64,000 nt of DNA from Ilex aquifolium (lineage: Eukaryota; Streptophyta; Magnoliopsida; Aquifoliales; Aquifoliaceae): assembly GCA_951799425.1 (NCBI GenBank), contig OX637404.1, forward strand, positions 22,440,545-22,504,544. Direction: 5' to 3'. This document shows, piece by piece, positions 23,674 through 61,037 of this stretch. Below the pieces are notes generated by a model. It saw nothing but the letters and a program-made list of their open reading frames with translations, was not told the DNA's origin and made no database searches. How positions within the stretch are numbered: the first letter of the stretch is position 1; each line of letters begins with the position of its first letter. The translations under genes and the position numbers were made by a program.

Positions 23674-25283
23674 TCAGAACAAGACAGCAGTTTCCCTCAA
23701 GGACATGTCCATTAGATCTTCTTGTCCTTGTGAAGCACCATCATCGAAGAGCCATTTCTCTAGTAAAGCCAAAGGCATTTGGCTGCTAGAATTTGGCTTT
23801 CTTTCATCATGGAAAAGGGTAGTTTGAGGTGTGAAAGTAGCAGTTTCATCCACAGACACGGATTTAGAAGCATCAGAATTGGCAGAATTGAAGCTAAACA
23901 GTGATTCTAAACTCCCCGGTGTCATCGCACTGAGTCCTTCACTAGGACTAGAACCTATTCCAACTGGGTTGATGAAGGAATTTTGAGTAGTTTGGCTTGT
24001 TTCGGAGCTTGTTAGAGACGATTTTGGGGAGTTTTTCATCCAGTTTTCGAGCAATCGACTTATATTTTCAGTGCTTGATGCATATGTGGTTGTTTGGATT
24101 GGTGTGATGTAAGGACAATGGGTATTAGATTTAGAGGGCTTTGATTCTGGAAAATTGCTTGATTTATCAAGTGATAAAGCCTCACTTAGAGCTTGTTTAG
24201 CCATGTGGATGTCTGTTTGAAGCCTTCTTTCCCACTGTCCCTTTGAATCTGAGTGCCCATCTTGATTGTGTTTATCATGTTCATGGCCTTGAAGCTTTTT
24301 GAGCTTCTTCTTCAAATGGGTATTCCAATAGTTCTTTATGTCGTTGTCTGTTCTCTGAGGAAGGTAGGAAGCTATGGCAGCCCATCTGCATCAAAGGTGA
24401 GATTCAGATTATTAATCACAGGATCAGAATGTATTTTGTATTATGGGTAAAATTAAGGTATCAAAGAGTTACTTTTCGACACAAGTTTTCCACCCCTCAA
24501 TCTAACAAGCTTACAACAGAATGAGTTTATTAACTTGATTTGGAATCCATGATCCATTCTTACATTTAAGACGGACCGATTGGTAACCAGATCTCAAATC
24601 AATTGTAACTAAGGTTCATTTAGTTGTATTTTTATACAATACTGAACTCGATACCAGATGTAGAAATATATAGTTAGAACTTAGATCCAACCCAGATCGG
24701 GGAACAATGGCGTTATACATGAGTTCATCTAAAGAGGAGGAATGTAGAGATTTTAGTACCTATTGCCTAGAAGTGCTTGGAGGTGGATTATCATCTTCTC
24801 CTCATGATCAGTGAAGTTGCCACGTCTGATGCCCGGCCTTAGATAATTAGTCCATCTAAGCCTGCAACTCTTGCTGCATCTAAGCAAACCTGATCAAAAA
24901 TCAACATGAGAGAGAAAGTTGTTAATACAAACCAAATCATACAAAAAGTAGATTTAACCATTTTAATTTGTCCATTGAAGAAGAAGATGCAAGAGCTGCA
25001 GAATATTAAATACACCACTTTAATGATCATAACTAACCCAAACCAACCCAAAAGCTAAAAGTAGAAAAAAAAAAGCCAAAATTAAAGAAAAGAACAATAG
25101 TGAAATGAAGAAATTAAAAATAAAGTTGATTATCAGTTTGAAGTTTTTACCAGTATTAGTAGGAACAGCTCTCCAATTCCCAGGTCCATGTTCTTGAATG
25201 TAAGATACCAAGGTGATGTCCTCTTCAGGAGTCCATGGCCCTTTCTTCACACCAATTTTATCACAGCAAGGTGGTCTACCCAT
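23674..25283 (-). CDS. R2R3-MYB factor, subgroup 1 (MYB30/60/94/96-like)
   Basis: Three exons: 25151-25283 (133 bp), 24760-24889 (130 bp) and 23674-24385 (712 bp). They join in phase at GT-AG borders to give 324 residues. R2 (about 11-61) has W17, W37 and W57; R3 (about 64-112) has F70, W89 and W108. The start [20 protein letters not shown], the motif [12 protein letters not shown] and the C-terminal LLEKWLFDD are shared with the MYB94/96/306 branch, whose members activate cuticular wax synthesis under drought and ABA; MYB60 of the same subgroup acts in guard cells. The bHLH-binding signature in R3 is not seen. A 130-bp second exon is canonical for R2R3 genes. The CT-rich leader and a TATA-like box lie upstream. 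The exact orthologue is uncertain and the gene looks intact. Confidence 0.95.
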
Positions 25284-25352
25284 ACTCCCTCCTTGACTCT
25301 TTCTCTCTTCAACCCTCTCAAATCAAGCAGTCTCTGTTTTCCAACAAAAGAG

Positions 25353-25353
<1 letters not shown>

Positions 25354-25396
<43 letters not shown>
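25354..25396. repeat. (CT)n microsatellite in the MYB 5' leader
   Basis: About twenty CT units with one TTT interruption (near 25384), 70-110 bp upstream of the MYB start. In the transcript it would read as a GA-rich leader. The frames translated as Ser/Leu repeats here are artefacts. Confidence 0.85.
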
Positions 25397-25468
25397 AGGA
25401 GCTCATGGTTTGTTCTCCTCCTTATAAGAAAAGCTGAGACATGAGTCTAATGCAAGTGGTACCCTTGT

Positions 25469-25486
25469 CTATATATAGATATATAG
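25469..25486 (-). promoter_or_regulatory. Probable TATA box of the MYB gene
   Basis: CTATATATCTATATATAG (minus strand) lies about 190 bp upstream of the MYB ATG and just beyond the CT-rich leader, a plausible core-promoter distance. Sequence only. Confidence 0.45.
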
Positions 25487-25489
25487 AGA

Positions 25490-30521: not shown

Positions 30522-31392
30522 AATATATACAATGCTACTCTCTCTCTTCACCCCCATCAATTCATGATTATGGATCTTGCCCATGTAGTTCTAAGTGTGA
30601 ACAAGCTAGCCACAAGACGAAGACAGAAGCGTGAAGACTTGGAATTGGACTCTAACAAACAACACTTTTTTGACAATTTCTCACTAATTGTAGCATGATT
30701 TATTGGCCGGACACTGGATGTGGACTCACCATACTGTGACATATCATTAACCTTCGCGTCACATATTGTGGAATATTTCACACAGTAATAAATAGGGTTG
30801 AGTTTGGATTTATGTTTGAAATTAAATAAGAGTGGTCCTAATAAAATGCCAAAAACTAGCACAAACTTGTTTCTAGTGCACAAAAGCAAGCAAAGTTGCT
30901 TTCGTATACAGTGAATCCAATAAAAAAAAAGTCATTATCCAGTTTGAATTTTATCGATAAAAAATGATTAATCAAATAGGTCCACTTTTTGCGATGGACA
31001 TTAATTTTTCGGCTTCGAGTGAATTCTATTTAATTTAGGCATTGAATTTTTTTATCGATAATGATGTATCCATTGCTGAAAGTCATACATCTTACTGCGA
31101 CAATGGTGGTCATTTGTTATGCCGATATTTTTTTAGCGAGGATTAGGTGGTTGTCGATAGTCTCATCTTCTGTGAAAATTTCAATTTTTTTTGCTAAAAT
31201 TTTCTGAAACGATGTGCAAAAATACTTTTGGGGGCGAAGTAGGTCGTCGTGAAAAACTACCCATCCCTTTCATCTAGTACATACTCGGATGCTTAACAAA
31301 TTTTTTTTTATAAAACCAATTATTTTGTAAGTCATATGATGAATATATGTATATGATTGTATTTGTGGAAATTCTTTTCCGTTGGGAATATT
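30522..31392. other. Non-coding spacer before the LINE
   Basis: Frames at 30557-30889 (minus) and 30429-30698 (plus) are not recognised. No repeat structure is seen. Confidence 0.35.
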
Positions 31393-31406: not shown

Positions 31407-34400
31407 TGTATCCTTAGTTGGAACTGCCGGGGACTTGGGTATCCTCGGACAGTTCAAGATTTACGCGATTTCGTAAAGAAAGAACGGCTCGATTTTGTCT
31501 TCCTTTCGGAGACGAAATGTAATGTTATGAGAGTTGATTTTTTGAAAATGATGTTTGGTTTGTATGGAGTGGCTGTTGAGTCGCAAGGAAATTCAGGTGG
31601 TTTAGTGTTGTTGTGGCAGAAAGATATGGATGTGGTTTTGCAGAGCTATTCCCGTGGGCACATCGACGTCATGATCAATGAAAGGGGTGAATAGGGGTCG
31701 TGGAGGTTTTCGGAAATTTATGGGGAACCGGAGACATCGAAGCATAGTGATACTTGGGCATTGTTGGCCCATTTGAGAAATCGAAATGAACTGTCGTGGG
31801 TGTGTGCTGGGGACTTTAATGAAATAGTTTCACAAAATGAAATGAAGGGGAGAGGAAGAAGGGCAGAATGGCAAATGCGAGATTTCCGTCAAGCCTTGGA
31901 TAGCTGTGCAATGGTGGATTTGGGATACACGGGCTTCCCCTTTACTTGGTGTAACAATAGGAAGGAGCCTAATACTGTGTGGGAAAGACTGGATATAGTG
32001 TGTGCGAACCTGGCATGGATGACGAGATTTCCTAATTCAAGAGTTTCTCATAAATTTTCGAAGGAGTCAGATCATTACAAAATATTATTGGATAGTAATA
32101 TGGGGTTGTCAAATTATGGGAGGTGTCCTAGGAAAAGACTGTTCTGTTTTGAAGCAGCCTGGGTGAAGAAAGAGGGATGTGAGGAGACTATTGAGGAGGC
32201 TTGAAATTGTGGTGAACATCTTTCAGGGGCTCAGGGGTTCACAAGGAAAATACAAGTCTGTAGAGTGGAGTTACTTAAGTGGAAACAGATGTATATTGGG
32301 CACATTCCAGCTAAGATATAAGACCTGAAAGGTAAACTGGCAAGTTTAAAGGAAAGTGGTATAACAGAGAGTTCAAGGCAACAAGCTCAAGAGGTGGTTA
32401 AGGAGTTGAATTCTTTGTTGGATATGGAGGAGATTTATTGGCGTCAACGATCGAAGATCCATTAGTTGAAGGAAGGGGATAAGAATACAGCTTTCTTCCA
32501 TGCCAGGGCATCCCAACGGCAAAGAAGGAACACAATTATCAAACTCAGAAATAGTGAAAGGGGTTGGTGCGAGAATTCAGAGGATATGGAACAAGCTGCG
32601 GTAGGGTATTTTAAGAAACTGTTTACTTACAGTAGACCACAAACCCAAGCGCTAGAGGCCATTCTAAGCAAGGTGGATCGCAAGGTGTCAGACGGAATGA
32701 ATTCAAGGCTCTTGCAAACTTTCCGTATTGATGAGGTAACTACAGCATTAGCTCAGATGTTTCCTATCAAATCACCCGGACCTGATGGTATGCCCCCACT
32801 TTTTTTCCAAAAGTACTGGCATATTGTCGGGGTGGATGTTGTTAATTGTATCTTGAATTTTCTCAATGGTGGTCAGTTTCCAGGAAGTTTCAATCATACT
32901 AATATTGTCGTTATCCCTAAATGTGAAAATGTAGAGTCTTTACATGAGTTTCGTCCAATTAGTTTGTGTAATGTTATTTATAAAATTATTTCAAAAGTTT
33001 TAGCTAATTGTTTAAAGCATATTCTTCCATCGGTCATTTCTGATTTTCAAAGTGCTTTCCTTCCTGGGCGGTTAATCGCCGACAATGTTTTGGTTGTATT
33101 TGAAATTAATCATTGCCTGAAGTGCAAAAGCTAGGGTAAAATGGGACATGTGTCTCTAAAGCTGGATATGAGTAAAGCTTATGACAGGGTGGAATGGGTG
33201 TTTTTAAAAGAAATGATGCTCACTTTGGGCTTTGATCCTAGATGGGTTACTTTGGTAATGCAATGCATCACAACCGTCTCCTATTCCATCATGTTGAATA
33301 ATGATCAAAGGGGCTATTTTCATCCTGAGAGGGGTCTTCGCCAAGGAGATCCCTTGTCACCTTATTTGTTTCTTATTTGTGCAGAAGGTCTAACAACACT
33401 TCTTCGCAATGCAGAGATGAATGGTCTGATCACAGGGGTCTCGGTGGGGAGGGGAGGTCCACGTATTTCCCACCTTCTGTTTGCCGATGACAGTCTATTA
33501 TTCTTTAATGCATCACTAGATGAGGTTGTAGCTATGAAGTCAATTCTTGGAATTTACGAAGTTGCTGCAAGGCAAAAAATCAACTTGGAGAAGTCTGTAG
33601 TGGTCTTTAGCAGCAATACTTTGGAGGCGCAAGCAAGTCAAGTCCAGCAAACCTTGGGGATAGATCGTGTTCTCCAACATGATAAGTATTTGGGACTTCC
33701 TACTGTGGTGGGTAAATCCAAAAAAGAGGTCTTTAGTAATTTAAAGGAAAGGGTGTGGAAAAAAATGCAAGGATGGAGTGAGCAACTTTTATCTAGAGCG
33801 GGTTATGAGGTATTAATTAAGGTTGTGGTGCAATCTATTCCCACATATGCCATGGGCTGTTTCAAAATTCCGGATAACTTTTGTGAGGATTTAGAAGCAT
33901 TATCGGCTAGGTTTTGGTGGGGACAAAGACATGGGGAGAGGAAAATTCATTGGGTTAGTTGGAGTAGAATGAGTACAAGGAAGGAGAGAGGTGGAATGGG
34001 CTTCAGAGATCTCAAGGCCTTCAATTTGGCGCTGCTCATGGAGATTGAATATTGAGACTAATTCACTTATTCACCAAGTGCTTAAGGCAAGGTATTTCCC
34101 TTTGTCATCTTTTATGGAGGCAAAGCTTGGCTATAGACCATCTTACTTGGAGAAGTATTTTATGTGCAAGAAAAGTGGTCATAGCAGGTTCGAGATGGAG
34201 AATAGGTGACAGATCCAGGGTCAATATCTGGTCGGATAGGTGGATACCCACCCCTGTAAGCTTCAAACCAGTTTCTCCTAAAAGGATTCTACCCGCTATA
34301 GCAAAGGTAGGAGATCTTATTGATGAGCAAACACGGAGTTGGAATGGGCAGTTGGTGGATGAAATTTTTTTGCCTCATGAGGCGTTGGTGATTAAAAGTA

Positions 34401-35546
34401 TACCACTGAGCAGAAATTCTATGGAGGACCGATTGATTTGGCATTATAACTCAAATGGGAGGTTCTCGGTACGTAGTGCATACCACATCATCATGGACTA
34501 AAAGCTAGTGCAAGCAGCCCCAAGTAGTTCATCTCCTTCTTCCAGTGCTGGATATCCTGATTGGAAGTTTATTTGGAATCATAAAATACCAAATAAAATT
34601 AAGATCTTTGCCTGGCGGGTGTGTTCCAATGCGCTACCAACGGCAGAGAATCTACGGCGTAGGAAAGTCTCAGTACATGGGAATTATGGGGTGTGTCAAG
34701 AGGTGGAGGAGTCATTAATTCACTATTTAAGGGAATGTTCTTGGGCAAAAGATGTGTGGCGCCTCAGCACGTTGAAATCAGTTGCCCATATTTCAACTTC
34801 TAAGTCTGGGCAGTGGTTGCGTGATGCCCAGCAGATCCTTTCACCCGATAAATTCTCAATGTTCCTTATTTTCTGCTGGTTCGTATGGAGAAATAGGAAC
34901 ACTTGTATCTTTGAAAACATGGTTCAAGATCTGGCTAAAGTGAAAATGAAGGCAATGGAATACCACAAGCAGTACATGGAGGTAGTAACTCAGATCAGTT
35001 TTGATCCAATGCCAAACCCCAATATTGGGCGGTGTCTTCTGAGAGCAGGTACATGCAAGGTGAATTTCGATGCAGTTGTATTTAGAGACTTAAATGTCTT
35101 AGGAGTGGGAGTAGTAATAAGAGATGACAGAGGTTACTTTGTAGGAGCTTTGTCTAAAAGGATGGAAATAAGATGTGATGTCCGTCAAGCAGAAACTATA
35201 GCAGCGAGATTAGCAATACAATTCGCAAAGCAGCTAGAGTTGCCAGAAGTTATTTTGGAAGGGGACTCTTCAGAAGTCATACATTCTATTGGGGGTCGTG
35301 TTGTGGATCTTGATCCCTTTGGTGCCATTTTGCAGGATATTAATAGTATAGCGAGTACCTTTCGTTATTTTGAAGTGTCCGAGGTTCGTCGCAATGGAAA
35401 TAAAGTAGCTCATGAATTAGTTCGCTTTGTTTTACCATTAAATAATAGTGTTGTATGATTGGAGCAGGCACTAGACTTTGTTATACCTCTCCTTTTTTCT
35501 GATATTCCTCAATAATATAATATTATCGTTGAAACTCAAAAAAAAA
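31407..35546 (+). mobile_element. 5'-truncated plant L1 LINE, 14-bp TSD
   Basis: A 4.1-kb non-LTR retrotransposon flanked by perfect direct repeats ATGTATGCTAATTA at 31393-31406 and 35547-35560. It ends with a short poly-A tail (35538-35546). It starts within a few codons of the endonuclease domain, so the 5' UTR and ORF1 are missing, the usual result of aborted target-primed reverse transcription. The internal pol is pseudogenic (separate entry). The perfect TSD suggests insertion more recent than the many lesions alone would imply, or inheritance of lesions from a defective source copy. Confidence 0.95.
31419..35458 (+). pseudogene. LINE pol: EN, RT, zinc knuckle, RNase H
   Basis: The domains read in order. 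Endonuclease (31419-32100): WNCRGLG, SETKCN, WVCAGDFNEI, LGYTGFPFTW and SDHY. Reverse transcriptase (32760-33700): KSPGPDG, FRPISLCNV, AFLPGRLI, LDMSKAYDRVEW, RQGDPLSPYLF and the catalytic LLFADD. A zf-RVT region (34550-34760) with WAKDVW follows, then an RNase H domain (35040-35430) with FDAVV, AETIAA, EGDSSEVI and NKVAHELVR. RNase H of this sort is known in a lineage of plant L1 elements. Lesions are TAG at 31692, TGA at 32202, TAA near 32319, TAG at 32463 and 33132, a frameshift near 34050, another near 34150-34190, and TAA at 34499. It cannot make a full enzyme. Confidence 0.95.
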
Positions 35547-35560
35547 ATGTATGCTAATTA

Positions 35561-36370
35561 CGGGGTTAATTATTATACTGAAAAGTAATTTTATAATTGT
35601 TTAGACCTAAAATGTAAAATTATAAGAATGTTCGATGCATTAACACCTGGAAAAATGCGGGAAATGGTCAAGCATAGCTTTATTTGAAAGAGAAATAACT
35701 GTTTGAGAGTTACAAGTCAGATAACTGTCAATGGAGGTGAAACTATCAAAGATAATGGCTATAAAAAACAGAAAATGAGGAAGTTGAAGGACACATTCAA
35801 ACCCCCACAAGACCCACGATCATGGCATTTTTAGGGGTAGTGTTAAGTTAGTTTTAGGAATTAGTTACTGCTGTAATCAAGACTCTTAATTCAGTGTTTT
35901 TGTAACTGAAAACCCTTCAATTGAATTAATAAATGGATTCTCTTTTATTAGTTGGCGATTCTGTGTGTTTACTGTTTTAAATTTTATCTAGGAAGTCCTG
36001 AAACAAGGCAATTAAACTCATCACTAACAATCGCCTGAAAACTGTCTGTCGATTAAGTTTACTCAGTCGATAACAACAGATTTTGGAGCAACAGTAGTAT
36101 TATATTTTTAATTTTAATTGAACAAAAACACAACACGTCAAAATTTTATTTATTTAATATTTTTTTATTATTTTATCACTTTTATAATCAATGGTTGCAA
36201 CTTACAAGTCATTCAAATTAAAATTTATAACCATAAATAAACCAATAGATAATTACATTACCAAAAGCAAATTAAATTTAGCTGATGTTATGAACCAATA
36301 GATAATTTTTATTTTTATTTTTATCAGCTATTATTATAGGAAGAGAGACAACGAAATTTGAAGTCATTAG
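35561..36370. other. Spacer, faint LTR-like sequence
   Basis: The stretch 35830-35960, with a GTTTTTGTAACTGAAAACCC-like phrase and an AATAAA-like signal, resembles the R region of a retroelement LTR. No ends can be defined. No gene is seen. Confidence 0.25.
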
Positions 36371-37170
36371 ACCATTAGACCAACCACATCTCTCAATAAA
36401 CAAATACTTGAAGACTTTGAGGACTAGGATTGAATCCCACCTTCTTGTGAGTTGAGAAGGGTGAACTCACTTCCTTAACTGGTGAAGTAGCTTGTTCAAA
36501 GTGTTTTTCTCTCTGTATGTAACATCTAAACACTATACACATGAATTAAATCTCAGTCACAAAAATTAACCAGCAGCTGCTAAGGGCAGTCAAGTGCACG
36601 CAGTTTTCGTCACTATAAGGTCTTGGGATGATCAGATGTACGTAATTTTATCTTCTTAAACGAAAAGACTTTCTACAACCCGAATTCTTGATTCTGAGAT
36701 TACAATAAATTTGCTAAAACACTCTTGCTAGCTTAATTTCTAGGCGGATCACCATCAGTACTATTACCTCTCACCAAAAAGAAAAAAAAAGGGCGGGAGG
36801 GGGACAATGCATACACCAAACCCACGAAGAAATGTTGATTTCTTTTCCCTCATGAAAGCAACATAACCTCCTTTTTCCATAATTTTCGGATTTCCACTCA
36901 GACTAAACAACATGAATTTTCACCGAAAATACATTTCTGCATCATTCTCTTATTAATACGATGAACCAATAGTACGCGAAGACACGATTTTTGTTAGAGA
37001 ATATGATATCTAAAATAAATTAATAAATAGTCAAATATAAGAAATTCTGATTAGTGGAACGTTTAAAAGAGTTACCCATTCATAATTTTGAACATACAAT
37101 TCAATACACTCGAGGAGTTAGATATTTGTAAGATTGTCTAACATGTAAAAAATAATATATAATGAGTAAA

Positions 37171-37187
37171 CCCCCCCCCCCCCCCCC
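37171..37187. repeat. Poly-C homopolymer, 17 bases
   Basis: An uninterrupted run of 17 C in copy A. The matching run in copy B (43315-43334) is 20 C and preceded by extra C-rich sequence. Exact lengths may be affected by sequencing error. Confidence 0.9.
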
Positions 37188-37873
37188 GAAAACAAAAAAA
37201 AAAACAACCAATCATATGCTTTATGATCACAACTGTAGTCACCATCATCGTTTCTCATTCAGTTATAACAATATTTTAGGTGGCACACAATGGAAAGGGA
37301 CTTATCACATAAATGTCAACCAATAACAATAAGCCCACCGAGCCCAATGGGCCCTTTCACCTCCACACAAGCACAGCCCACACATTTCGCAAGATTGACA
37401 CGTGTATGGCCTTCGACGAACCACCTATCTACACATTTAAGTGGGGATGGGCACGTAGAAGAGCCAGCGTAACTGATAGAGTCACCTAGCCATGATTGGG
37501 CTTGGAGCTGAAATTGGAGCCCACCACGTAAAAAAGTTTTTTTTTAAATTTTTGTTTTAATACGGGCCGGGCCCACCAGGCCCTAATGTCTAATATGTGA
37601 TGCGAGAGCATTAAAGTGGGTTTGTGCGGTATTGTACACCGCTGCTTACATTTGTCAGTTATATTAATGTATGATCCCGAAAAATTATTTTTCTTATCAT
37701 ATTTTTTTATTAATTAAAAAATAGTACATTCAAAATTTATTATTTATTATTTTATTTTATTTATTATTTTCACGATCATGATCACAAACAAAAATAAAAA
37801 AAAGACCCACGATTAAAATTCTTTCTTTTTTTTTTTTTTCAGAAAAGTGTTTTTTTAATAGCATAAGAGATAT

Positions 37874-38041
37874 GAGCAATGCTATATATCTCAAATTTGT
37901 ATATCAAATGTGCATTCCAAATCAATGAGGATGGTTGGATCAGTGGGTCCCAATTAAAAAAATTGATGAGACTCACTCATCTATCCTCGTTCATTTAGGA
38001 TCCACATTTAGAATACAAATTTGAATTATATAGTATTTCTC
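37874..38041. mobile_element. Mutator-like MITE present only in copy A
   Basis: Left end GAGCAATGCTATATATCTCA and the complement of the right end GAGAAATACTATATAATTCA form ~30-bp TIRs, with further pairing through CAAATTTGTAT. The flanks AAGAGATAT (37865-37873) and AAAAGATAT (38042-38050) match at 8 of 9, fitting a Mutator-type 9-bp TSD. Copy B (about 43796-43806) has one uninterrupted AAGAGATAT followed directly by CTATAAGG, the empty site. Confidence 0.85.
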
Positions 38042-38434
38042 AAAAGATATCTATAAGGATTCCAGGATTACGTTTAAGCGACGTGAAGGGTTGACACGTA
38101 TCAATATCTGTAGGCCCACCTGCCGACAGATTATTGAATGTGGTGTGAGACACAGTGGTCTAAGGTGTTGACTCTATGAGATGAAGGTCTGAGGTATTTG
38201 GTGTGGGTGAGGCTATCAAAAGTCAAACCTCGGTGGGTTCTGTTCACTTGAAGCAAGGTTGTTAGTAATGTCTCTAACAACATCATTATTAGTACGGTGG
38301 CGTTTTAAAATATGATATTATCTGTTAATAGATATAATGATAATATGATATTAAAGGGTTTAAAGTTTTTTTTAATTACCTGCTTCGTAAATGAGTGTAC
38401 TCAACATGACACGATTAATAAACAAATCAGGTAT

Positions 38435-39112
38435 TATGGGTGCAATTCGGACGGGTTGAGAGATCAACCCTAGGTATATAATCTTTAATCTTAACCTGAA
38501 CTCGATCTCAACCCGAGGTATTCAACCTGAGTACTACCCAAGTTAAATTTGGGCGAGTTCGAGTTGAATTCAAGTTTTTTAATTCGGGCTAATTTTGAGT
38601 TAAAACTCGAGTTGAATTCGGGTTACAAATTACACAACTCAATCAGAACACAATATAAAAAAATTAAACCAAAATGTCCAAAAGACCATAGCCACCGCCA
38701 CCACACTACAGCCATTGCCACCACCTACCCAGTGATGTTCTTCGCTGAGAGAGGCATAGATCTGAGATAGGTCCTTTGAATCATTGTGATCTTCGGCGCA
38801 GATCTAAGAGAGATCCTTTGAGTCGTAATGGTCTTCGGCGCAGATCGAGTCGTTGTGGTCTTTGTAGACCTCATTGTTTGAGAAAGAGGCAGAGAACGAG
38901 AGAGAGGCGTATGAGATTTTGTATATATATATATTTAAATTTGTCGAGTTTGGGTTGAATCTGATAACTTGATGCCTCAATCCGGGTGTTGCCCGAATTC
39001 AATTCGGATTGGAGTTTTTAAATCCAAGCCTAATTCAAAATTTTAAAACCTAAACCCAAGCCTTATTTTTTTTGGGTTGGGCTCGGGTTGGCCTGCCTAA
39101 GTTGCACCCCTA
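38435..39112. mobile_element. hAT MITE shared by both duplicate copies
   Basis: Left end TATGGGTGCAATTCGG and the complement of the right end TAGGGGTGCAACTTAGG are TIRs. The flanks TCAGGTAT (38427-38434) and TCAAGTAT (39113-39120) match at 7 of 8. The 678-bp interior has CAACCCGA/TCGGGTT-rich arms. The same element occupies the same position in copy B, so it is older than the duplication. The frames at 38549-38958 inside are not genes. Confidence 0.82.
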
Positions 39113-40360
39113 TCAAGTATGAGTGAAGTCAATCAAAAAAATACACGACACAGCTCGTTTATATATTAATTATATACATTTATACACGACACGAACCTGA
39201 TATGACACGATTCATTAGATACAAATTAATAAACAAATGGGATATGAGTGAAATATTTTTTAACATGAACTCACTAGCACCTAACACAAACGTACTTCAC
39301 CTGACATGATTGACAGACCTATATTATATGCTCACTTTAGTTGGACAAGATCTCACTTTTTTATCGAGAAGTTTGATATTTGAATCTAATCAAATACAAA
39401 ATGTGTTTGCAATAAAAAGAAAAATTATCATCGGTATATTTCCCCCCTTCCCCCTTTAGAAAAGGGTTGCGGGAGAGCGACCAACATAGAAACTCTATCT
39501 GAACGTGACCATAATGGCTTGAATCTGCAAAGAATGCGCAAGAAAAAAGTAAATCTTCATTATAAATGTGGTATCATACCATTCTTGACATGTGATATCA
39601 TATTGTAAAAACAATATGATAGTTTTATCCTTATGCAAACTATGAGGGATATGTAGGAAATTGTATTAGAGTTATTTATGGCCCTTATACTGTCGGTAGC
39701 CCTTAACCTGCCTGATAATACCACCTCTCATGTGGTATTAGATATAATTATGTACATGGGTTTAGTGTAACTGTAATTGTCCAGTCAAGATTTAGATCTG
39801 AAAATTAGTACCAAAATTAAAATACAAAACAAATGAGGTATAAGTGAATCTCATATACTAATTTACTTTATCCCACCGCTTAATACTCTAACTATTCGAC
39901 AAACAAACACACCCTTAGTGTACATCACAAATATACAGGTGCGGGGACGATAACCATTAAACCAACCACATCGCTCAATAAATAAATACTTGAAGACATT
40001 TGAGGACTAGGATTGAATCCCACCTTCTTGTGAGTTGAGAAGGGTGAACTCACTTCCTTAACTGGTGTAGTAGCTTGTTCAAAGTGTTTTTCTCTCTGTA
40101 TGTAATCTCACTTATAACATCTAAACACTATACACATGAATTAAATCTCAGTCACAAAAATTAACCAGCAGCTGCTAAGGGCAGTCAAATGCACGCAGTT
40201 TTCACCACTACAAGGTCTTGGGATGATCAGATGTACGTAATTTTACATTCTTAAGCGAAAAGACTTTCTACAACCCGAATTTTTGATTCCGAAATTACAA
40301 TAAATCTGCTAAAACACTCTTGCTACCTTAATTTCTAGGCGGATCACCATCAGTACTATT

Positions 40361-42905
40361 CCGGAAAGTAAAGATGTATTGCATATCAAAAGAGATACAA
40401 AAGCATGGGCATCCCCATGGTATTACAAAGAATGGAAAACAAATCTGTGAGAGGTGTGAGCAAGTAGCTACACCTCAGACAGATTTGTCAAAAGAAGTTT
40501 CCATATGAAACTGATGATGAAATTGGGAAGTTACACAATACAGTTGCTTGGGAGTTGTAGTTTTCCAGAAATGGCGAGATTCAGTTGAGAGCTTTTGAAT
40601 TTCAGAGATGCAAGTTTGTCCCTTACAGTTTGCAACATGGATTTGAAGATAGTGCTTGGGTCCTTTGCCTTGTTAGCGAAAATTCTGGTGTTTCTTTCCA
40701 TCCATAGATAGTAGACAGCAGCCACAGGCGGAGGGAGGCAGGGGCCAGGGTAGGCACGTGCCCCCCCCTCAAAATTTTTTTTATTTTATTAGTGAGGTAT
40801 ATGTATTATATATTTATACATCTATATTATATGTGCCCCCCTCATTTATATTAGACTCACATTATTTACCCAAAATAATTAAAAAATTAAGCCCAATTAA
40901 AACAAAAAAAAAATTGAGCTCACTATTATCTACCCAAACTTATTAAAAAATCAAATATTTGACCTATTACAATCCACCCAAACCTATTAAAAAAATAAAA
41001 TTTTTAGCCCAACATTAAAAACAAAATTTTTGGCCCAACATTAAAAACAAACTTTTGGCCCATCTATCATTAAAAAACAAAACTTTTGGCCCACTTGACT
41101 AAAACTTATCTTATCTTTCTTTTTTTTTTTTTTTCTCTTTGTCTCACTCACTCCTCCTAGCTGCCCACTGTCCAGCCACAAGAAAAAGAGAAGAAACCGA
41201 GAGAAGCTCAGTTCCTTAAGTTCCTTGAGTTTTTTTGTCTTTCTTTGCACCGACCTATAAAATTATTTTATACATTATATTTACCCCCTAAATTTTTGAA
41301 AATTTTAATAATGGTTCTAATCTTTTTTTTTTTTTTTAATAAATTAGTGGACCACTAACCCTCTAAAATAAATATGTTAGTTTTGGATTGAGTCAATGTT
41401 CTATTTGTATATTGACGAAAATACAATATTTCTCTTTATCTAATACAATATTCGTTACTTTTTAAGAATAATTTTTAGTTTTCATTTACCATTTTTTTAG
41501 TAATAATAGTTTATAATTTAATAAAATACGATTGTATACAAAAAATAAAAAGTTGTAACCCAAAAATATTTCAAACTATATTGAATAGGAAATTTCTCTA
41601 TAAGATTGATAATGATCTCAACTAAATTTTGTAACTAAATAAAGAATAATTTTACTACGTACTTGTGATTGTGCGCATTGATAGAAAATTAGTGAAAAAT
41701 TAATTTACATTTAATTCATATACAAAATTTTAGAGATTTTAAAAAAATTTATATTTTATTGAAATATATAATTAGGTTAAAATGTACTAAAAAAATTATT
41801 TTGTGTCTTTTTGTTAAGATTTTGTTTCGGCTAAATAAAAATTGAATTTATTATTTCATAATAATTTAGTGTTGATTCTTATTTTTTTTTCATTCTTGAA
41901 CTGAATTTTTTAGTATTAATTTCAACTAAATATTTTTTTATACCAGTTATATTTTGCCTCCATTATAAATATTCATGGCTCCGCCCCTGGCAATATACAT
42001 TTTTTTTTTGGAATTTTTTATGTTAAATGGATTTCATATATCAAATATAATATAATAAATATAAATATGTTATATAGTGTGATTGGTTAGACAGAAAAAA
42101 ATTATAGTGCATAATTAAAGTGTCCACCCTGAACAAAATTTCTGGCTCCGCCCCTGACAGCAGCTGAGAGACACAACTTTTGAAGGACTATGAATAATAT
42201 CTTCCCTTTCCAGTGAAGTGCAGCCCATGAGACAAAATTAGTCCAAGGCATGCATTGCCAAGAAAAGTTGAAGTGTTGGTTGAGTAAGTTCCAGACTCTC
42301 TTAGAGTATTGGCACTCAAAGAACAGGTGAAAGTGAGACTCAATATCTTCACCACATAACACACACTCCAGGTCTTGGTGAGGGGCATAAGCATGAATTT
42401 TGTCCTTTGTTTTGAGCCTCTGCTTGACTGCAATCCAAAGGATGAAACTTAGTCTAGGAACAAATTGACTATACCAGACAAGTCCATGCCGAGGAACCAC
42501 CTCAGCCTTTGTTCTAAGATGTTCCCATGCAGATTTTGAAGAAAAAGAACCATTGGAGGTGAGGGACCACTTGACTTTGTCAAAAGCATTCTGGTTTGGC
42601 AAATAAAGGGGCATGGAGTTTGAAATTTCCAAAGTTCCCCCTGATGGATGTGGTGGCCATTTTCATTGATTGTTATGAATGATGGTGCTGACTTTTGTCG
42701 CCCTTGAGGTGTTTGTAGACTGGAGGATACTCTGGTCATATCTCTGAAGCAAAGGCCCCAGTGGATGCCAATTGTCAAGCCAAAGAAATGTGTCATTTCC
42801 ATTCCCAATTTTGTGGAGGAGGAAAGGTCCGAAGGCTTCCCTCATCTTAAGCAAATTGAGCCAATTCCATGAGCAACATTGAAGAGGGGGGGTGCTATAC
42901 CAAAA
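40361..42905 (-). mobile_element. LINE fragment, split by a hAT insertion
   Basis: The minus strand encodes the C-terminal part of a plant L1 pol. It reads CCSWNWLNLLKMREAFGPF, DTFLWLDNWHPLGPL, a zf-RVT region (about 42300-42480) with WYSQFVPRLSFILW, CVLCGEDIESHFHLFFEC and VWNLL, then LQKLCLSAA. After the hAT element (40733-42156) it resumes as VYYLWMERNTRIFANK and stops at 40531. A premature stop follows HNNQ near 42661. The 3' UTR runs to about 40361 with no evident poly-A, and no TSD is seen. Copy A has 36 bp (36766-36801) in its place, so the integration involved a deletion. It is a different subfamily from the LINE at 31407 because no RNase H follows. Confidence 0.85.
40733..42156. mobile_element. 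Non-autonomous hAT inside the LINE fragment
   Basis: Left end CACAGGCGGAGGGAGGC and the complement of the right end CAGGGGCGGAGCCAGAA are TIRs of the same family as the elements at 22019 and 51071. Both flanks (40725-40732 and 42157-42164) read ACAGCAGC, a perfect 8-bp TSD. Removing the element and one TSD restores a continuous LINE reading frame. The 1.42-kb interior is AT-rich with repeated TTTGGCCCAACATTAAAAAC phrases and no transposase. Confidence 0.9.
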
Positions 42906-43314
42906 GGACAATGCATACACCAAACCCACGAAGTGCATACACCAAACCTACGAAGAAATGTTGATTTCTTTTCCCTCATGAAAGCAACATAACCTCTTTT
43001 TTCCATTAATTTTCGGATTCTACTCAGATTAAACAATATAAATTTCCACAGAAAATGCATTTCTGCATCATTCTCTTATTAATACGATGAACCAATAGTA
43101 CACGAAGACACAATTTTTGTTAGAGAATAGGATATCTCAAATAAATTAATAAATAGTCAAATACAAGAAATTTTGATTAGTAGAACGTTTAAAAGAGTTA
43201 CACATTCATAATTTCGAACATACAATTCAATACACTCGGGGGAGTTAAATATTCGTAAGATTGTCTAATGTGTAAAAAATAATATATAATGAGTAAAAAC
43301 CCCGAGAACCCCAA

Positions 43315-43334
43315 CCCCCCCCCCCCCCCCCCCC
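43315..43334. repeat. Poly-C homopolymer, 20 bases
   Basis: The copy-B counterpart of the 17-base C run at 37171, three bases longer and with an extra C-rich lead-in (ACCCCGAGAACCCCAA). Confidence 0.9.
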
Positions 43335-44450
43335 GGAAAACAAAAAAAAACAACCAATCATCTGCTTTATGATCACAACTGTAGTCACCATCATCGTTTC
43401 TCATTCAGTTATAACTATATTTTAGGTGGCACACAATGGAAAGGGACGTATCACATAAATGTCAACCAATAACAATAAGCCCATAGAGCCCAATGGGCCC
43501 TTTTCACCTCCACACAAGCACAGCCCACACATTTCGCAAGATTGACACGTGTATGGCCTTCGACGAACCACCTATCGACACATTTAAGTGGGGATGGACA
43601 CGTAGAAGAGCCAGCGTAACTGATAGAGTCACCTAGCCATGATTGGGCTTGGAGCTGAAATTGGAGCCCACCACGTAAAAAAGTTTTTTTTTTAAATTTT
43701 GTTCTAATACGGGCCGGGCCCACCAGGCCCTAATGTCAAATATGTGATGGAAGAGCATTAAAGTGGGCTTTTCAGAAAAGTTCTTTTTTAATAGCATAAG
43801 AGATATCTATAAGGATTCCAGGATCACGTTTAAGCCACGTGAAGAGTTGACACGTATCAATATCTGTAGGCCCACCTGCCGACAGATTATTGAATATGGT
43901 GTGAGACACAGGGGTCTAAGGTGTTGACTCCTTGAGATGAAGGTCTGAGGTATTTGGTGTGGGTGAGGCTATCGAAAGTCAAACCTCGGTGGGTTCTGTT
44001 CACTTGAAGTAAGGATGTTAGTAATGTCCCTAACAACATCATTATTAGTACGGTGGCGTTTTAAAATATTATATTATCTGTTAATACAATATAATGATAA
44101 TATAATATTAGAGGGTTTAAATTTTTTTTAATTACCCACTTGTAAATGAGTGTACTCAATATGACACGATTAATAAACAAATCAGGTATTATGGGTGCAA
44201 TTTGGACGGGTTGAGAGATCAATCCTAGTTCAACTCTAGTTATATAATATTCAACCCTAATCTGAATTCAATCTCAACCCGAGTACTGCCCAAATTGAAT
44301 TTGGGCGAGTTCGGGTTGAATTTAAGTTTCTTAATTCGAACTAATTTTGAGTTAAAATTCAAGTTGAATTCGGATTACAAATTACATAACTCAATCAGAA
44401 CACAATATAAAGAAATTAAACCAAAATGTCCAAAAGACCATAGCCACCGC

Positions 44451-45090
44451 TAGGGGTGCAACTTGGGTTGGGCAACCCGATTTTAACCCGAGCCTAACCC
44501 GAAAAAATTAGGGTTTAGGTTAGGGTTTTTAATACTTGGGTTGGGCTTGGGTCAAAAAACCTCAACCCGAATTCAATTTAGGCCGGGCTTAAGTCGAGGT
44601 ATCGACAACCCGATTTCAACCCGAACCCGACAAATTAAAAAATAATTTTATATATATAAAGCATTAGCATTTTTTTTCATTTTTACTCCATCGTCCTCTC
44701 TTTTTAGTTACTTGCTACTCTGTTACGCGTGATTAGTGGTGATAGTGTGATGTTTTAAGTTTAATGTTTTTATGGGTCTAATTTCTATGTTTTCTGGGAT
44801 TGTGCTTTGAGATCACTAGTTTTTTGGTATGAAAGCAGATGATCAATAATCGTGCACTGTTATGAATGAAATATATGGATTGTTTTATGAATTTGTAATT
44901 ATTTCTCCCCTCTCTCTGTCTCTCTTGCAGTGAACCCGAATTCAACCCGAGTCCGTCCGAATTAAACTCAGGCAGTGCTCGGGTTGAGTTCCTCAACTCA
45001 ACCCGAGGTAGGATTAGAGTTAGCGTTGAAGATTATATACCTAGGATTGGGCTAGGGTTGACTGTCTAACCCGCTCGAGTTACACCCCTA
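44451..45090. mobile_element. hAT MITE nested in a hAT MITE
   Basis: Left end TAGGGGTGCAACTTGGG and the complement of the right end TAGGGGTGTAACTCGAG are TIRs. The flanks GCCACCGC (44443-44450) and GCCATCGC (45091-45098) match at 7 of 8. Copy A has the uninterrupted site at about 38688-38695. The 640-bp interior has CAACCCGA-rich ends and no transposase. Confidence 0.88.
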
Positions 45091-46009
45091 GCCATCGCCA
45101 CCACACCACAGCCACTGCCACCACCTGCCCAGTGATGTTCTTCACTGAGAGAGGCACAGATCTGAGAAAGGTCCTCTGAATGATCTTCAGCGCAGATCTA
45201 AGAGAGATCCTTTGAGTCGTAGTGGTCTTCGGCGCAGATCGAGTCATTGTAGTCTTTGCAGACCTCATTATTTGAGAGAGAGGCAGAGCACAAGAGAGAG
45301 GCGTATGAGATTTTGTATATATGTATGTATATATATATATATATATTTAAATTTGTTGAGTTTGGGTTGAATCTGATAATTTGATGCCTCAATCCGGGTG
45401 TTGCCCGAATTCAATTCGGATTGGAGTTTTTGAATCTAAGCCTAACTCAAAATTTTAAGGGTGATTTAGAAGCCGGTACAATTTTTTAGATTTATTTAGG
45501 CAAAAGTAAAACACAAATACTTATTTGGGGTAAAGTGCATATTTTTAAAAAATGACACTATTGCCATTCGGTTAAGTGCAGATGGGTTGAAACTATTTGA
45601 ATTCCTACCGAAAATTTTGGCTACAATCAAGTAATGAGAGTTAAAAAATAGGAGCTAAAAAATAGGAGCTTTAATTATCTAATCCCTTCTTCTTCGGCAA
45701 AAGGGATTCTATGGCCATGGGAATGTCATATCCGTTTTTTTTTTTGGCTAAAATCAAGTGGGAGGTAAAATAGGGGGTTTAATTATCAAAACCCATCTTC
45801 TTCAACAGAATGATTCAAAATAAAACCATATGGGAATGCCATATCCGTTTTTTTTTCAGTCATTGATTATTTAGTTATTTTTTTCATAAACCTGTGTAAG
45901 TTGATTCAAAAATAAAACCAAATCGTAAAACCCTAATTTTGTGAAAATATATTAAGAATTTGCAGATCTATTATAGCATATGTATATGAAAAAAAAACAA
46001 TTTGGAACA

Positions 46010-46440
46010 TGATTTTTTTGATTAAAAATAGTTACGTAACTGTTTTAAATAATTATTTGGGATTCAAATATAGACTATTTATATTCAAAATTTAATGGTT
46101 TACCTGTTTTGCGTAACTATTCTTCTGATTTTAAGGATTCAATTCTTATAAGTCTATTATTGGCAACTTTATGGTTCATATTTTTTTGATTAAAAATAGT
46201 TACGTAACTGTTTTAAATAACTATTTGAGATTCAAAATATAGACAGTTCATATTCAAAATTTAATGGGTTTAACTATTTTGTGTAACTATTCTTCTGATT
46301 TAAAGGATTCAATTCTTATAAGTCTGTTATTGACAATTTTATGGTTCATGATTTTTTTGATTAAAAATAGTTACGTAACTGTTTTAAGTAACTATTTTGG
46401 ATTCAAATATAGACAGTTCATATTCAAAATTGTGGTTTAT
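46010..46440. repeat. ~170-bp tandem repeat, about 2.5 copies
   Basis: Units begin at about 46011, 46180 and 46350, each with TTTTTTGATTAAAAATAGTT then ACGTAACTGTTTTAA and TCATATTCAAAATT. They lie within the Mutator-like element. Confidence 0.8.
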
Positions 46441-46824
46441 GGAAACTCTTGTACTATCTACTATGTTGTAACTTTATGGTGTAACTGTTTTTGATAATTA
46501 TTAACAGTATGAGTTAATTGGAATTTTCATGATGATTTCATGCAGCAAGTTGAAGTGCAACGGGACATCCCATCCGATGAAGACATCTCTCCATTCCTGA
46601 TTAAGACATTAATAAAAAAATGAATGACATTGTATCAATTCAAAAGGAAAAGAAAAACAGTTACACAAAACAGAATAAAAAAACATTAATACAAATGACT
46701 GAATTAATTAATCACATACTCGGAGAAAAACATAAACACAAAATAATTACAATATACAGGATCTACCAAAAATAGACATTGGCTGAAAACTTGCATTCAA
46801 GAACAATTATACTAAAATGCAACT

Positions 46825-47330
46825 CTGATTTTTTCAACACAGTTACACAACAGTTACTATTTATACGAAAAATAGTTTACATCCATTAAAAAACAGTTAC
46901 ACCCATTAAAAACCAAAACAGTCTTTTTTTTTAACACAGTTACACAACAGTTACTATCTATACGAAAAATAGTTACACCCATTAAAAAACAGTTACACCC
47001 ATTAAAAACCAAAGCAGTCTTTTTTTTTTTTCAACATAGTTACACAACAGTTACTGTCTATACGAAAAATAGTTACACCCATTAAAAACCAAAACAATTT
47101 TTTTCCTCCTTCATCCCAACAACGAACAACATAAAACAAAAAATAATAAACCCAAAAACAGTTTTTTTTTATCCCATTCATTCCAACAACGACTAAACAT
47201 ACACAAAATCGAACATATGAATTTTCCAAAAAAAAATGACAGAATTGTAGAAGAAATATAATTATTTTGTCTATACTAAAAATAGTTACACCCATAAAAA
47301 ATACTGAAAATAGTTACACCCATTTAAGAT
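46825..47330. repeat. Array of GTTACACCCATTAAAAA repeats
   Basis: A ~95-115-bp unit combining CAGTTACACAACAGTTACT, TATACGAAAAATAGTT and one or two ACACCCATTAAAAA segments recurs about four times with decay to the right, within the Mutator-like element. Confidence 0.75.
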
Positions 47331-48819
47331 CAAAACAGTTTGTTTTTTCCCTCTATTTCAATAAGAAACGAACATAAAACAAAAATCAAATATAGAAAAT
47401 TCCCAAAAAATGAAGAAATATAATTATGTACAACTCACTTTCAATCCGATGACGATGATTGGTATTTGCATTTTCTTTTTCAAAGAAAACCACCACCGAA
47501 AAAATAAATTGCCGTTGAAGAAGACTTATCAGTTGAACACGTTGAAGAAGACTTATCAGTTGAACACATACGTTTGATTTAAAATAATAAAGATAACAAA
47601 TATGTAAAGATTACATATTTGTTTCTTAAAATAACTGTCAATAGATGCATAAATCTCTCACAAAACTACTCATTCAAAAATCAAAAATCAAAAAAGATAA
47701 CAAATATGTAATCTTTACATATTCGTTTCCTAAAATAACTGTCAATCATAGCTGCATAAAATAAGGAAGAATGTTTAAGTAAAAAGGATTTTAATTCTTT
47801 TGAATTTTGTACCTAAACATAAAATGTTTTATAAAAATTGTACTTAATAAAATAAACTACTTCCCCATACACTTTTGCTTAAATAAGTATTGAAAATTGT
47901 ACCCACACCTAAAAAACTCAAATTTTAAAACCCCAACCCAAGCCTTATTTTTTTGGGTTGGGCTCGAGTTGGCCCGCCCAAATTGCACCTCTATCAAGTA
48001 TGAGTGAAGTCAATCAAAAAAATACACGACACAATTCGTTTATATATTGATTATATACATTTATATATGACACGAACCCGATATGACACAATTCATTAGA
48101 TACAAATTAATAAACGAATGAAATATGAGTGAAATATTTTTTAACATGAACTCACTAGCACCTGACACAAACGTACTTCACCTGACATGATTGACAGACC
48201 TATATTATGTGCTCACTTTAGTTGGACAAGATCTCACTTTTTTATCGAGAAGTTTGATATTTGAATCTAATCAGATACAAAATGTGTTTGCAATAAAAAG
48301 AAAAATTATCATCGGTATATTTCCCCCCTTCCCCCTTTAGAAAAGGGTTGCGGGAGAGCGACCAACATAGAAACTCTATCTAAACGTGACCATAATGGCT
48401 TGAATCTGCAAAGAATGCGCAAGAAAAAACTAAATCTTCATTATAAAGCTGGTATCATACCATTCTTGACATGTGATATCATATTGTAAAAACAATATGA
48501 TAGTTTTATCCTTATGCAAAATATGAGGGATATGTAGGAAAGGGTATTAGAGTTATTTACAGCCCTTATATTGTCGGTAGCCTAACCTGCCTGATAATAT
48601 TACCTCTCAGGTGGTATTAGATATAATCATGTACATGGATTTAAGATAACTGTAATTGTCGAGTCAGGATTTAGATCCGAAAATTAGTACCAAAATTAAA
48701 ATACAAAACAAATGAGGTATAAGTGAATCTCATATACTAATTTACTTTATTCCACCGCGTAATACTCTAACTATTCGACAAACAAACACACCCTTGGTGT
48801 ACATCACAAATATACAGGG

Positions 48820-51062
48820 GTATAGTTATAGGACTATGTTTGTCCATTTGTGGGGTATTGAGCGTGGTTACCAAAGTCACATCTTTGTGGGTCTTATTCA
48901 CTTTCTAAGGCATGGTAGTTAATCATGTCTCTAACAAGACCATTACTACATACGTGGTCACTAGCACTACTCTAAATGTGTTGCACCTTAAAGATATGAT
49001 TTTTATTGCTCTTAACTGGTGCAAGTCTTAAATCATTACGGGTTCAATCAAATAATAAAAATCTCCTCTCCCTCAACTTATTGGGAGGTCAGAAATTACG
49101 TATTAGTTTGAATAACTGAAGTCTTATCTTGTAATTGAGAAGTTAGACGTTTAAACCCGTCACATGTAAAATATGCATTACGAAAAAAGATTAGCACTAA
49201 CAACATCTAAGATCTTGAATTCAACCTGCACTAAATCACTTCCAACACCCTCCATTCAGTAAATAGTATTTCTTTTTGTGTGTCGGGTAGCGCACATTAA
49301 GATTTGTCGAGTGATTGTCCAAAAAAGGTATAAAACCATGCTTTCATATTAATTTTGATTGATAAACACTAAGGCTCTTCTCCAAAATTTCAACTCAATT
49401 GATGTAACATTCACCATTCCATCAGCTTCGGAGTTCAAATCTGTCATGAACACGTATTTACTAGTTTTGGGATAACCATTGAGATAGAAGTATCAAAAAT
49501 TTGAGTAGATTAAATGCTCCTCATAATAAATTGATTGCAACCAATATGAATTAGACTAATCAGCTTCTTTTGCTATCATCTCCAATATTCTTTGTCCATT
49601 TCCTGTACTGTTCTTTTCAACTTCAGTCAAATTACTCATGGCTACCTCTAATTTTTCAAAAACTGCCATCATTTATCAACCTAACACCGGCGGACAGGCA
49701 ACAGGCAACAGGCAACAGGCATAAGATTTACACTCTTCCCCTATCTCACCCCACAACCCGCTCACCCTGCACCACCAACGCCGGTAATATGTCTATTATT
49801 TCTAGAGAGAGGATGAGAGAGGAAGACAAGATTAAAAGAGAAGAGAAAGTAGGAAGCCCAAGAGAGAGAATTGTGAGAGAAGATTACAGATAAGAGAAGA
49901 GAAAGCTGGAAACTGTAAGAGAGAGTGGTTAAAAACAAGAATGGCATGTAATATTAAAATTTAAAAAAAGAAAACCAAAACAAAATGGTTGAAAGTTTGG
50001 AGACCATTCAGACACTACTGCATGGGCAACACTGTAATAGGATTTAAGATTCAACCTCATCCACTCACAGAAGTTTGCTTATCAGAAAGAAATAGTAACA
50101 CTAAACAGTTTAGAATTCTCATTAGGACAAGGCCAATCCAGATAATATTGCATTGAGCTTCATCATGATTTGTACTGTAAGGATGCAGAGACATGCCATA
50201 GGCAATCTATATGCCCTCTGGTGCAATTTCTCTAAGTTATTAGGAGAATTATGCATACTTAAGCAGCTCAAAGTTTCAATCATTTTTCACAAATTTCTTC
50301 AGCCAGCACCACATGCTAAAACTTAAGATGTGCCCTTACACATACCAGTGCCAACTATCGCTGCCTGTTTTTGTAACGTAAATTAGCCCATAGTCTATAT
50401 CATCAGACCTTATATCATTTTGGCATTCCTTCACTCCCGAATTGACTACCAAGCCTGCACCCCAACCAATGTTATTCGGCTAAGTCCAGAAAGTCCTGTA
50501 AACAGCTTAAGTGGTAGGCTAATTTTGTGGCCTACAGACAAAGCAATAAGGGTTGATTATATTACCCCCACAAAGGAAAAACAGATTTCATTTTTATTAA
50601 ATCTCTACTGCATTATGAAAGAGCTAAGCTCTTTAAAAGCTAACAGTTCCTTGATTTTCACAGAGAAAGTTCCATTTCCGGATAGACACTGATGGCAAAT
50701 GGCACTTCCAACAATCTTCAACTGGTTAATTTGGCATAAAACCCAATTTGTCTGTCATCTAACAGTAAACCCACTTACCACTGAAAACATTCAAATGAAA
50801 TAAGCTTCCAAAACTTAAAAGTGTAGAGATAAGGAGATGTAGAGATAAGAGGGGAGATTATTGTTCCTGACATCCTTTATCAGGAAAACTAATCAACTCA
50901 GAGAGATTTCTTCCTCTTCTTCAAAGAGAAGGCAATCTCTTCATTTTGTTAAACAAAATATTCGGAAAGAAATATATCATCAATTTTGATAAGTTTATAG
51001 ATAACCAGTTATAATGTGTTTACCCTATTTACCTCTCGCTCAGAATCATGCCATGACTTTGA
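48820..51062. other. Spacer, no gene recognised
   Basis: Open frames at 49570-49893 and 50420-50692 do not resemble known proteins. A short CAGGCAA tandem repeat lies at about 49695-49720. No element ends are seen. Confidence 0.4.
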
Positions 51063-51070
51063 CTCGGTTG

Positions 51071-51740
51071 CAAGGGCGGAGCCAGAATTCTATCTGAGAG
51101 GGGGCAAGAATATGAATGAAAAATTAATTAATTGAGATAACAAAAATTTGGATATTAATTAATAAGGAGTAAATTGGGTATTATATTTATAAAAGTAAAA
51201 CACATTAAAATTGTATGAAATTTCAAGAATCGACTATTATTGTTCAGTTTCATGACATAAAATTCTCAATAGTTTTCTTTTAATGTAGTTGAGAAATTGA
51301 TCTTTTGGAATAACTTAAATTGATCTTTCGGGTTAGTACATTTTATTAGTTGCATTAATTTGTGTGATACTAATTTTTGAGCCAACAATCTATAAAAAAA
51401 AATTGATAGACAACTATACAACTGTTTTTAAAGAATAAGAGGAAGGATATTAAATAATAAAGGTGTCTTCGGTTAATATATGAGTTAGGGTGTTTTACAT
51501 TTGATTTATTATTTAGTCTAAAAATAAAATATTTATTTCAGTAAATTAGAGGTCAATGTACCACTAACTTACCGAAAAGAAAATAGACCAAGGCCATCAT
51601 GCAAATTTTCAAAGACTTAAAAGGGGGCAATGTAATCAACTAAATATAATTTATTTTTCTGATACAGTAAATATGTAGTATTTCTTCAAAATTGAGTGGG
51701 GGCAACTGCCCCCACAATGACCCAAGTACCTCCGCCCCTG
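51071..51740. mobile_element. Non-autonomous hAT, CAGGGGCGGAGC family
   Basis: Left end CAAGGGCGGAGCCAGAA and the complement of the right end CAGGGGCGGAGGTACTT are TIRs. The flanks CTCGGTTG (51063-51070) and CTCGATTC (51741-51748) match at 6 of 8. A subterminal TTGCCCCCAC motif like that of the 22019 element occurs near the right end. It is 670 bp with no coding potential. Confidence 0.78.
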
Positions 51741-51748
51741 CTCGATTC

Positions 51749-52167
51749 AAATTATATATAAGCTCTCCATGGCTTCATGCAAAGTATACGAGTATATTTT
51801 TGGGTTAGGGAGGTCTAAAACTGCTTCATGTCTTAAATTTTAAAGAAACACTTGCTAATAATTATAAGCATAAAGATTACGTGCTCAACAAATAAAATTA
51901 TTTTATTATATACTAATTGGAACTTGATCCAAAACAGGGACGAGACTGGGGAGGGGGGGAGTGACGTATGGGTGAGTCTAATTCTCCGAACGAAGTAGGA
52001 TATTATTGTACATACTTCAATGAATAAACTCTGTGATTCCATGGAACTTCATTGGCAAGTGAAACATACTAGGGTTAAAAAACAAATATGTGTTCACCAT
52101 TGCATACCGGAAAGAACTGTTTACCTCTGCCTTGACCACTTTCTGCTCCCCATAAGTCTTTTTACCA
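51749..52167. other. 3' flank of the hydrolase gene
   Basis: Likely contains the 3' UTR of the minus-strand hydrolase gene near 52167. Nothing else is recognised. Confidence 0.4.
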
Positions 52168-60890: not shown

Positions 60891-61037
60891 TTTGTATATA
60901 TCACGAGTCTCACTTATAGTCACTTGCCTCGCAATGTTGCATAAGATTTCCCGTCACTTTGATATTTAACTTAAACCTTTCGCAATGCGCACCTTCTTCA
61001 ATCTAACACTTTGTGCGTAGTATTTGACATCATAAAA

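What the first reader, a model, noticed from the sequence alone, without database searches (positions are those of the whole stretch)
36371..48819. Tandem duplication with readable insertion order
A ~3.57-kb unit is repeated head to tail (36371-39939 and 39953-48819) and the copies serve as filled and empty sites for each other. The hAT MITE at 38435 is in both copies and so predates the duplication. Only copy A has the MITE at 37874. Only copy B has the LINE+hAT composite, a nested hAT MITE and a 2.46-kb Mutator-like element. The length arithmetic closes to within tens of bases.
Basis: seen in the sequence. Interest (0 to 1): 0.82.

Follow-up and report, generated by a model that had tools for sequence, protein, structure and literature searches.

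The report
Tandem duplication dated by jumping genes
A 3.6-kb stretch of plant DNA, probably holly, was copied head to tail some millions of years ago, and the mobile elements that later landed in one copy or the other can be put in order; it is a clean but ordinary piece of plant genome history.

Summary
Copy A (36371-39939) and copy B (39953-48819) lie head to tail, 13 bp apart. They are about 95% identical outside the shared MITE. The left 1001 bp matches only A and B at length in the 800-Mb assembly. Target-site duplications confirm four of the five named insertions; the LINE junctions are not clean.

One correction: the lengths miss by 171 bp until a further A-only 214-bp segment is counted. 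A colinear region on C20 shares its first 44 bp, so it was most likely deleted from B. C20 also has the empty site of the A-only MITE.

C20 looks like a whole-genome-duplication partner (MYB pair Ks 0.32; published Ilex peak about 0.3). Scaling by that event puts the duplication at roughly 7-10 Ma (inference). LINE and MULE came later, the shared hAT MITE earlier.

The junction fits end joining or template switching, not homologous recombination (inference). The unit lies 11 kb upstream of a MYB gene, but no excess conservation was found. Real, well resolved, ordinary in kind.

The parts
36371..39939 (+). Copy A of the duplicated unit (3569 bp)
39940..39952 (.). 13-bp filler at the A/B junction; no piece of 8 bp or more recurs in 35-50.5 kb
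39953..48819 (+). Copy B of the unit (8867 bp, swollen by insertions)
38435..39112 (.). hAT-type MITE present before the duplication (copy A), TSD TCAGGTAT/TCAAGTAT
44190..47993 (.). Same hAT MITE in copy B, interrupted by a nested hAT and a MULE; same TSD pair
37874..38041 (.). A-only Mutator-type MITE, 168 bp, TSD AAGAGATAT/AAAAGATAT; empty site in B and in C20
37621..37834 (.). A-only 214-bp segment; its first 44 bp align to C20, so most likely deleted from B
40359..42886 (-). 5'-truncated LINE fragment (zf-RVT domain), B only, interrupted by a hAT element
40723..42156 (.). Non-autonomous hAT element inside the LINE, TSD ACAGCAGC (8/8)
44451..45090 (.). hAT MITE nested in the older hAT MITE, B only, TSD GCCACCGC/GCCATCGC (7/8)
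45459..47919 (.). Non-autonomous Mutator-like element, B only, 9-bp TSD AAATTTTAA exact
36766..36800 (.). About 35 bp present in A and missing from B at the LINE site
42928..42949 (.). 22-bp tandem repeat in B beside the LINE
37190..37664 (.). Sequence shared with the colinear C20 region
38082..38245 (.). Sequence shared with the colinear C20 region
23677..25283 (-). R2R3-MYB gene, 324 aa in three exons (MYB60-like, subgroup 1, by recall); the duplication lies on its upstream side

Best explanation
A block of about 3.2-3.4 kb between genes, already carrying a hAT MITE, was duplicated in tandem on scaffold C14 by non-homologous repair (end joining or replication template switching), which left a 13-bp filler. 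Shown: the two copies, the lack of other near-full copies in the assembly, the lack of visible homology at the breakpoints, and the target-site duplications. Inferred: the repair route, and an age of roughly 7-10 million years (K 0.047 scaled by the MYB pair Ks 0.32 and a published 49-71 Ma Ilex whole-genome duplication). Afterwards copy A gained a Mutator-type MITE. Copy B most likely lost 214 bp, and gained a 5'-truncated LINE, a hAT element inside that LINE, a second hAT MITE inside the old one, and a 2.46-kb non-autonomous Mutator-like element. I found no sign that the unit has a function of its own; it works as a passive record of insertions.
For: Alignment and boundaries. A and B are the only near-full matches of three query stretches of the unit. 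TSDs and TIRs of shared and private elements. The old MITE's shared mismatched TSD and distant relatives. LINE: nearest K 0.030 among 13 aligned copies; MULE: nearest K 0.027 among 7 over its first 1001 bp, and 0.028 among 4 over full length; A/B value 0.047, or 0.083 inside the shared MITE. MULE copies elsewhere with the same 9 bp on both sides: L011, L015, L016. The hAT in the LINE has the same ends in family copies elsewhere. Colinear C20 stretch with the empty MITE site and the start of the 214-bp segment. MYB pair Ks 0.32-0.33; Ilex peak about 0.3 and WGD 48.75-70.62 Ma (passages).
Against: No read-level test of the tandem arrangement. The LINE site has no clear TSD (candidate GTACTATTACC/GTGCTATACC by eye, weak), and its flanks differ by about 35 bp. 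The A-only MITE differs at 16 of 168 sites from the consensus of 17 relatives, more than expected for an insertion after the duplication at the shared-MITE rate (Poisson P 0.0024); but only 1 of its differences is absent from all 17. The hAT inside the LINE is at best 94% like a full-length relative, although it must be younger than the LINE (97%), so distance to relatives is only an upper bound on age; for the nested hAT MITE (93%) that bound is barely below the A/B value. The deletion rests on 44 bp of C20 similarity. C20 also has a weak second match to B 43795-43879 (11767-11847 of the stretch, E 1.35e-5).
Confidence: 0.88

Rival explanations
1. The two copies are the two haplotypes of one locus, wrongly placed in tandem by the assembler.
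For: The probable source assembly is one haplotype, not fully phased, and curation removed 7 haplotypic duplications (PMC11109700, passages), so such errors occurred. Presence/absence of elements is also what heterozygous alleles look like.
Against: No N in the window; a 13-bp filler rather than an overlap at the junction; 4.7% divergence is high for alleles and the unit is small for a false duplication (both recall).
Confidence: 0.08
2. The duplication is real but arose by unequal exchange between two different alleles, so some A/B differences, such as the A-only MITE, were there from the start.
For: The A-only MITE is further from its family consensus than the duplication age predicts.
Against: Only 1 of its differences is private. 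LINE and MULE are too close to relatives to predate the duplication. No homology seen at the breakpoints.
Confidence: 0.1
3. The duplication doubled a distal regulatory block of the MYB gene.
For: The unit starts 11 kb upstream of the MYB start codon. It holds sequence shared with C20. 37190-37620 shows 4 transitions and 9 transversions between A and B against 73 and 25 in the rest outside the MITE (P 0.003, chosen after seeing the data).
Against: Similarity to C20 is at the neutral level: best 40-column windows hold 32-34 matches, null median 35 for 70% identity over 700 columns. A/B differences in the shared blocks, 19 of 580, are not significantly fewer than 92 of 1878 elsewhere outside the MITE (P 0.11). 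In Arabidopsis 1.3 kb upstream was sufficient for MYB60 reporter expression in stomata (PMC3248575, passages).
Confidence: 0.06

Closest known systems
Small tandem segmental duplications with filler DNA at the junction (recalled)
   Same: Head-to-tail copies, short filler, no visible homology at the breakpoints
   Different: Nothing in kind; the later insertions make the chronology unusually legible
Nested transposable-element stratigraphy in plant intergenic DNA (recalled)
   Same: Order read from nesting and empty sites
   Different: Here the sister copy and a whole-genome-duplication partner serve as empty sites
Ilex whole-genome duplication (PMC9441949, PMC11709435; passages)
   Same: MYB pair Ks 0.32 fits the reported peak near 0.3; colinear blocks on C20
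   Different: Only one gene pair was measured here

Membership tests
Tandem segmental duplication | Two head-to-tail copies of non-repetitive DNA at one locus | tested here: met
Tandem segmental duplication | Single reads span both copies | not testable with these tools
   no reads held
hAT (shared, nested and in-LINE elements) | 8-bp target-site duplication and short TIRs | tested here: met
   TSD 7/8, 7/8 and 8/8
hAT (shared, nested and in-LINE elements) | hAT transposase | tested here: not met
   in-LINE element: longest stop-free stretch 73 aa; no ORF of 110 aa in the shared or nested MITE. They are filed as non-autonomous hAT-type elements, for which this is expected
Mutator-like (45459-47919 and 37874-38041) | 9-bp TSD and TIRs | tested here: met
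   (9/9 and 8/9); copies elsewhere
Mutator-like (45459-47919 and 37874-38041) | Mutator transposase | tested here: not met
   longest stop-free stretch 103 aa in the 2.46-kb element; filed as non-autonomous
Plant LINE (40359-42886) | Reverse-transcriptase-associated domain | tested here: met
   zf-RVT, E 7.7e-23
Plant LINE (40359-42886) | 3' tail and TSD | tested here: inconclusive
   8 of 11 copies viewed end at CCGGAA without a long poly(A); TSD here only a weak candidate
Whole-genome-duplication partner (C20) | Colinear sequence and Ks at the Ilex peak | tested here: met
   one gene pair plus further blocks

The most novel reading that the evidence does not exclude
The duplicated block contains a long-unmethylated regulatory tract (37190-37620 and its counterpart in B), and its doubling upstream of the MYB gene changed that gene's expression in this lineage.
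Probability: 0.05. Interest if true: 0.55.

Novelty: new member of a known kind. Interest (0 to 1): 0.28.

Why it matters
It is a compact worked example in which two copies of equal age calibrate each other. DNA inside the old MITE changed faster than its neighbours of the same age (51 of 657 against 111 of 2458 sites, P 0.0015), and mostly by transitions (46:5 against 77:34, P 0.005), as expected if transposon DNA is methylated (inference). It also gives a locally scaled date against which several element families of this genome can be placed.

Tried and rejected
Regulatory-block reading: the blocks shared with C20 looked like conserved non-coding sequence but are no better than neutral expectation. 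Gene conversion between copies: the longest identical run outside the MITE (108 columns) was reached in 1056 of 2000 shuffles. Rfam: 0 matches in 35400-49600 at gathering scores. Templated filler: best recurring piece 7 bp. Older third copy: 48859-48948 matches 38204-38291 at 72.5%; no counterpart above shuffles in the 2.3 kb of C20 tested; left open. Paper search for prior cases, at least 5 of 6 terms: 0 papers; this does not show that none exist. Paper search on assembly size and scaffold count, at least 3 of 4 terms: 0 papers.

Full report
Source. The window is G000:C14:22440545-22504544 of an 800,232,872-base assembly in 103 contigs. The size and the presence of contigs up to at least C20 of chromosome length fit Ilex aquifolium (800.0 Mb, 104 scaffolds, 20 chromosomes, HiFi 36-fold, one haplotype not fully phased; PMC11109700, abstract start and passages).

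Duplication. Self-comparison gives A 36371-39939 and B 39953-48819. The global alignment shows blocks of 82-97% identity, apart from short chance blocks inside the LINE, separated by one-sided gaps. I dropped columns 36766-36800 before counting. K2P is 0.054 overall, 0.047 without the shared MITE and 0.083 within it. Three query stretches, 36371-37371, 38045-38430 and 39130-39939, have only A and B as near-full matches in the genome. Parts of the unit are older repeats, with copies of 72-86% identity elsewhere (about 38300-38430, 39130-39337, 39641-39915).

Junction. The 13-bp filler has no match of 8 bp or more within 35-50.5 kb, and the printed breakpoints show no homology by eye. End joining or template switching is the best-supported route; this is inferred.

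Insertions. Shared hAT MITE: 678 bp in A; both copies keep the same mismatched TSD. A-only Mutator-type MITE: 168 bp, of a large family (1808 first-look candidates, 40 scored). Of 17 aligned family rows, 10 have exact 9-bp flanking repeats; L063 and L075 appear to be one copy read twice, and L067 and L076 are A/T runs. B-only MULE: 2461 bp; seven relatives lie at K 0.027-0.034 over the first 1001 bp, four at 0.028-0.040 over full length. L011, L015 and L016 show the same 9 bp on both sides; L010 matches over the 7 bp before the locus ends; L013 and L014 lie in T runs; L012 was not readable at its 3' end. B-only nested hAT MITE: best other match 93% (40 scored of 1837 candidates). LINE fragment: of 14 copies compared, 5 are about 97% identical and 9 about 90-93%; similarity ends at 42886 at the latest. 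The hAT in the LINE: best full-length match 94%.

Order. hAT MITE, then duplication, then the private insertions. The hAT in the LINE follows the LINE because it is nested. Among LINE, MULE and nested MITE the order is not resolved: distances to relatives are only upper bounds on age, as the hAT in the LINE shows. For the A-only MITE the distance (0.104 to consensus) taken at face value would point to an insertion older than the duplication; the empty sites in B and C20, and the single private difference, speak against that but do not fully settle it.

Missed event. The A-only 214 bp (37621-37834) found no other copy in the genome search. Its first 44 bp lie in a stretch that aligns to C20 (37533-37664), where B stops. 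The simplest reading is a deletion in B.

C20. C20:20508001-20534500 is colinear: the MYB gene (23394-25748), 30596-30761, three blocks of the unit, and blocks from 49472 to 53417. In this 26.5-kb stretch the unit blocks match once each, apart from a weak second match to B 43795-43879 (E 1.35e-5). It has the empty site of the A-only MITE (AAGAGACATCTAT). MYB Ks is 0.323 (NG86) or 0.330 (YN00) over 309 codons, with 252 residues identical. Published Ilex values: Ks peak about 0.3 (PMC9441949) and WGD 48.75-70.62 Ma over two phylogenies (PMC11709435), passages read. Scaling by hand gives about 7-10 Ma for the duplication, assuming that intergenic DNA and synonymous sites change at one rate; sampling error widens this.

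Genes nearby. The MYB protein has two Myb domains (Pfam); its placement near MYB60 is recalled, not tested. The gene on the other side (open stretches at 52168-52680 and 59681-60175, minus strand) is probably an alpha/beta hydrolase by recall; Pfam support is below the cut-off (E 0.01 for one piece, none for the other). The 170-aa piece has one match in the genome.

Function. The only ORFs of 110 aa or more inside the unit are LINE remains, and Rfam gave no match. The regulatory reading was tested and is not supported, although 37190-37620 shows an odd lack of transitions. The verdict is an ordinary, well-resolved duplication.

Noticed in passing
48859-48948: A diverged match (72.5%, E 5e-9) to unit positions 38204-38291 lies 40 bp beyond copy B, perhaps a much older partial copy.
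   Followed up: partly
37190-37620: A/B differences are 4 transitions and 9 transversions against 73 and 25 in the rest outside the MITE; C-to-T or G-to-A at 4 of 370 C/G sites (both copies counted) against 73 of 1377. Chosen after seeing the data.
   Followed up: partly
31695-35458: A larger LINE-like stretch with reverse transcriptase, zf-RVT and RVT_3 (RNase-H-like) domains in several frames.
   Followed up: no
40359-40420 and L030-L041: 8 of 11 LINE copies viewed end at CCGGAA without a long poly(A) tail, unusual for plant LINEs by recall.
   Followed up: partly
53270-53417: 148 bp are 87% identical to C20, the highest of the long blocks in the colinear stretch; probably an exon.
   Followed up: no
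61031-62288: Simple-repeat-rich sequence with a related array near 1498-1880 and on C20.
   Followed up: no
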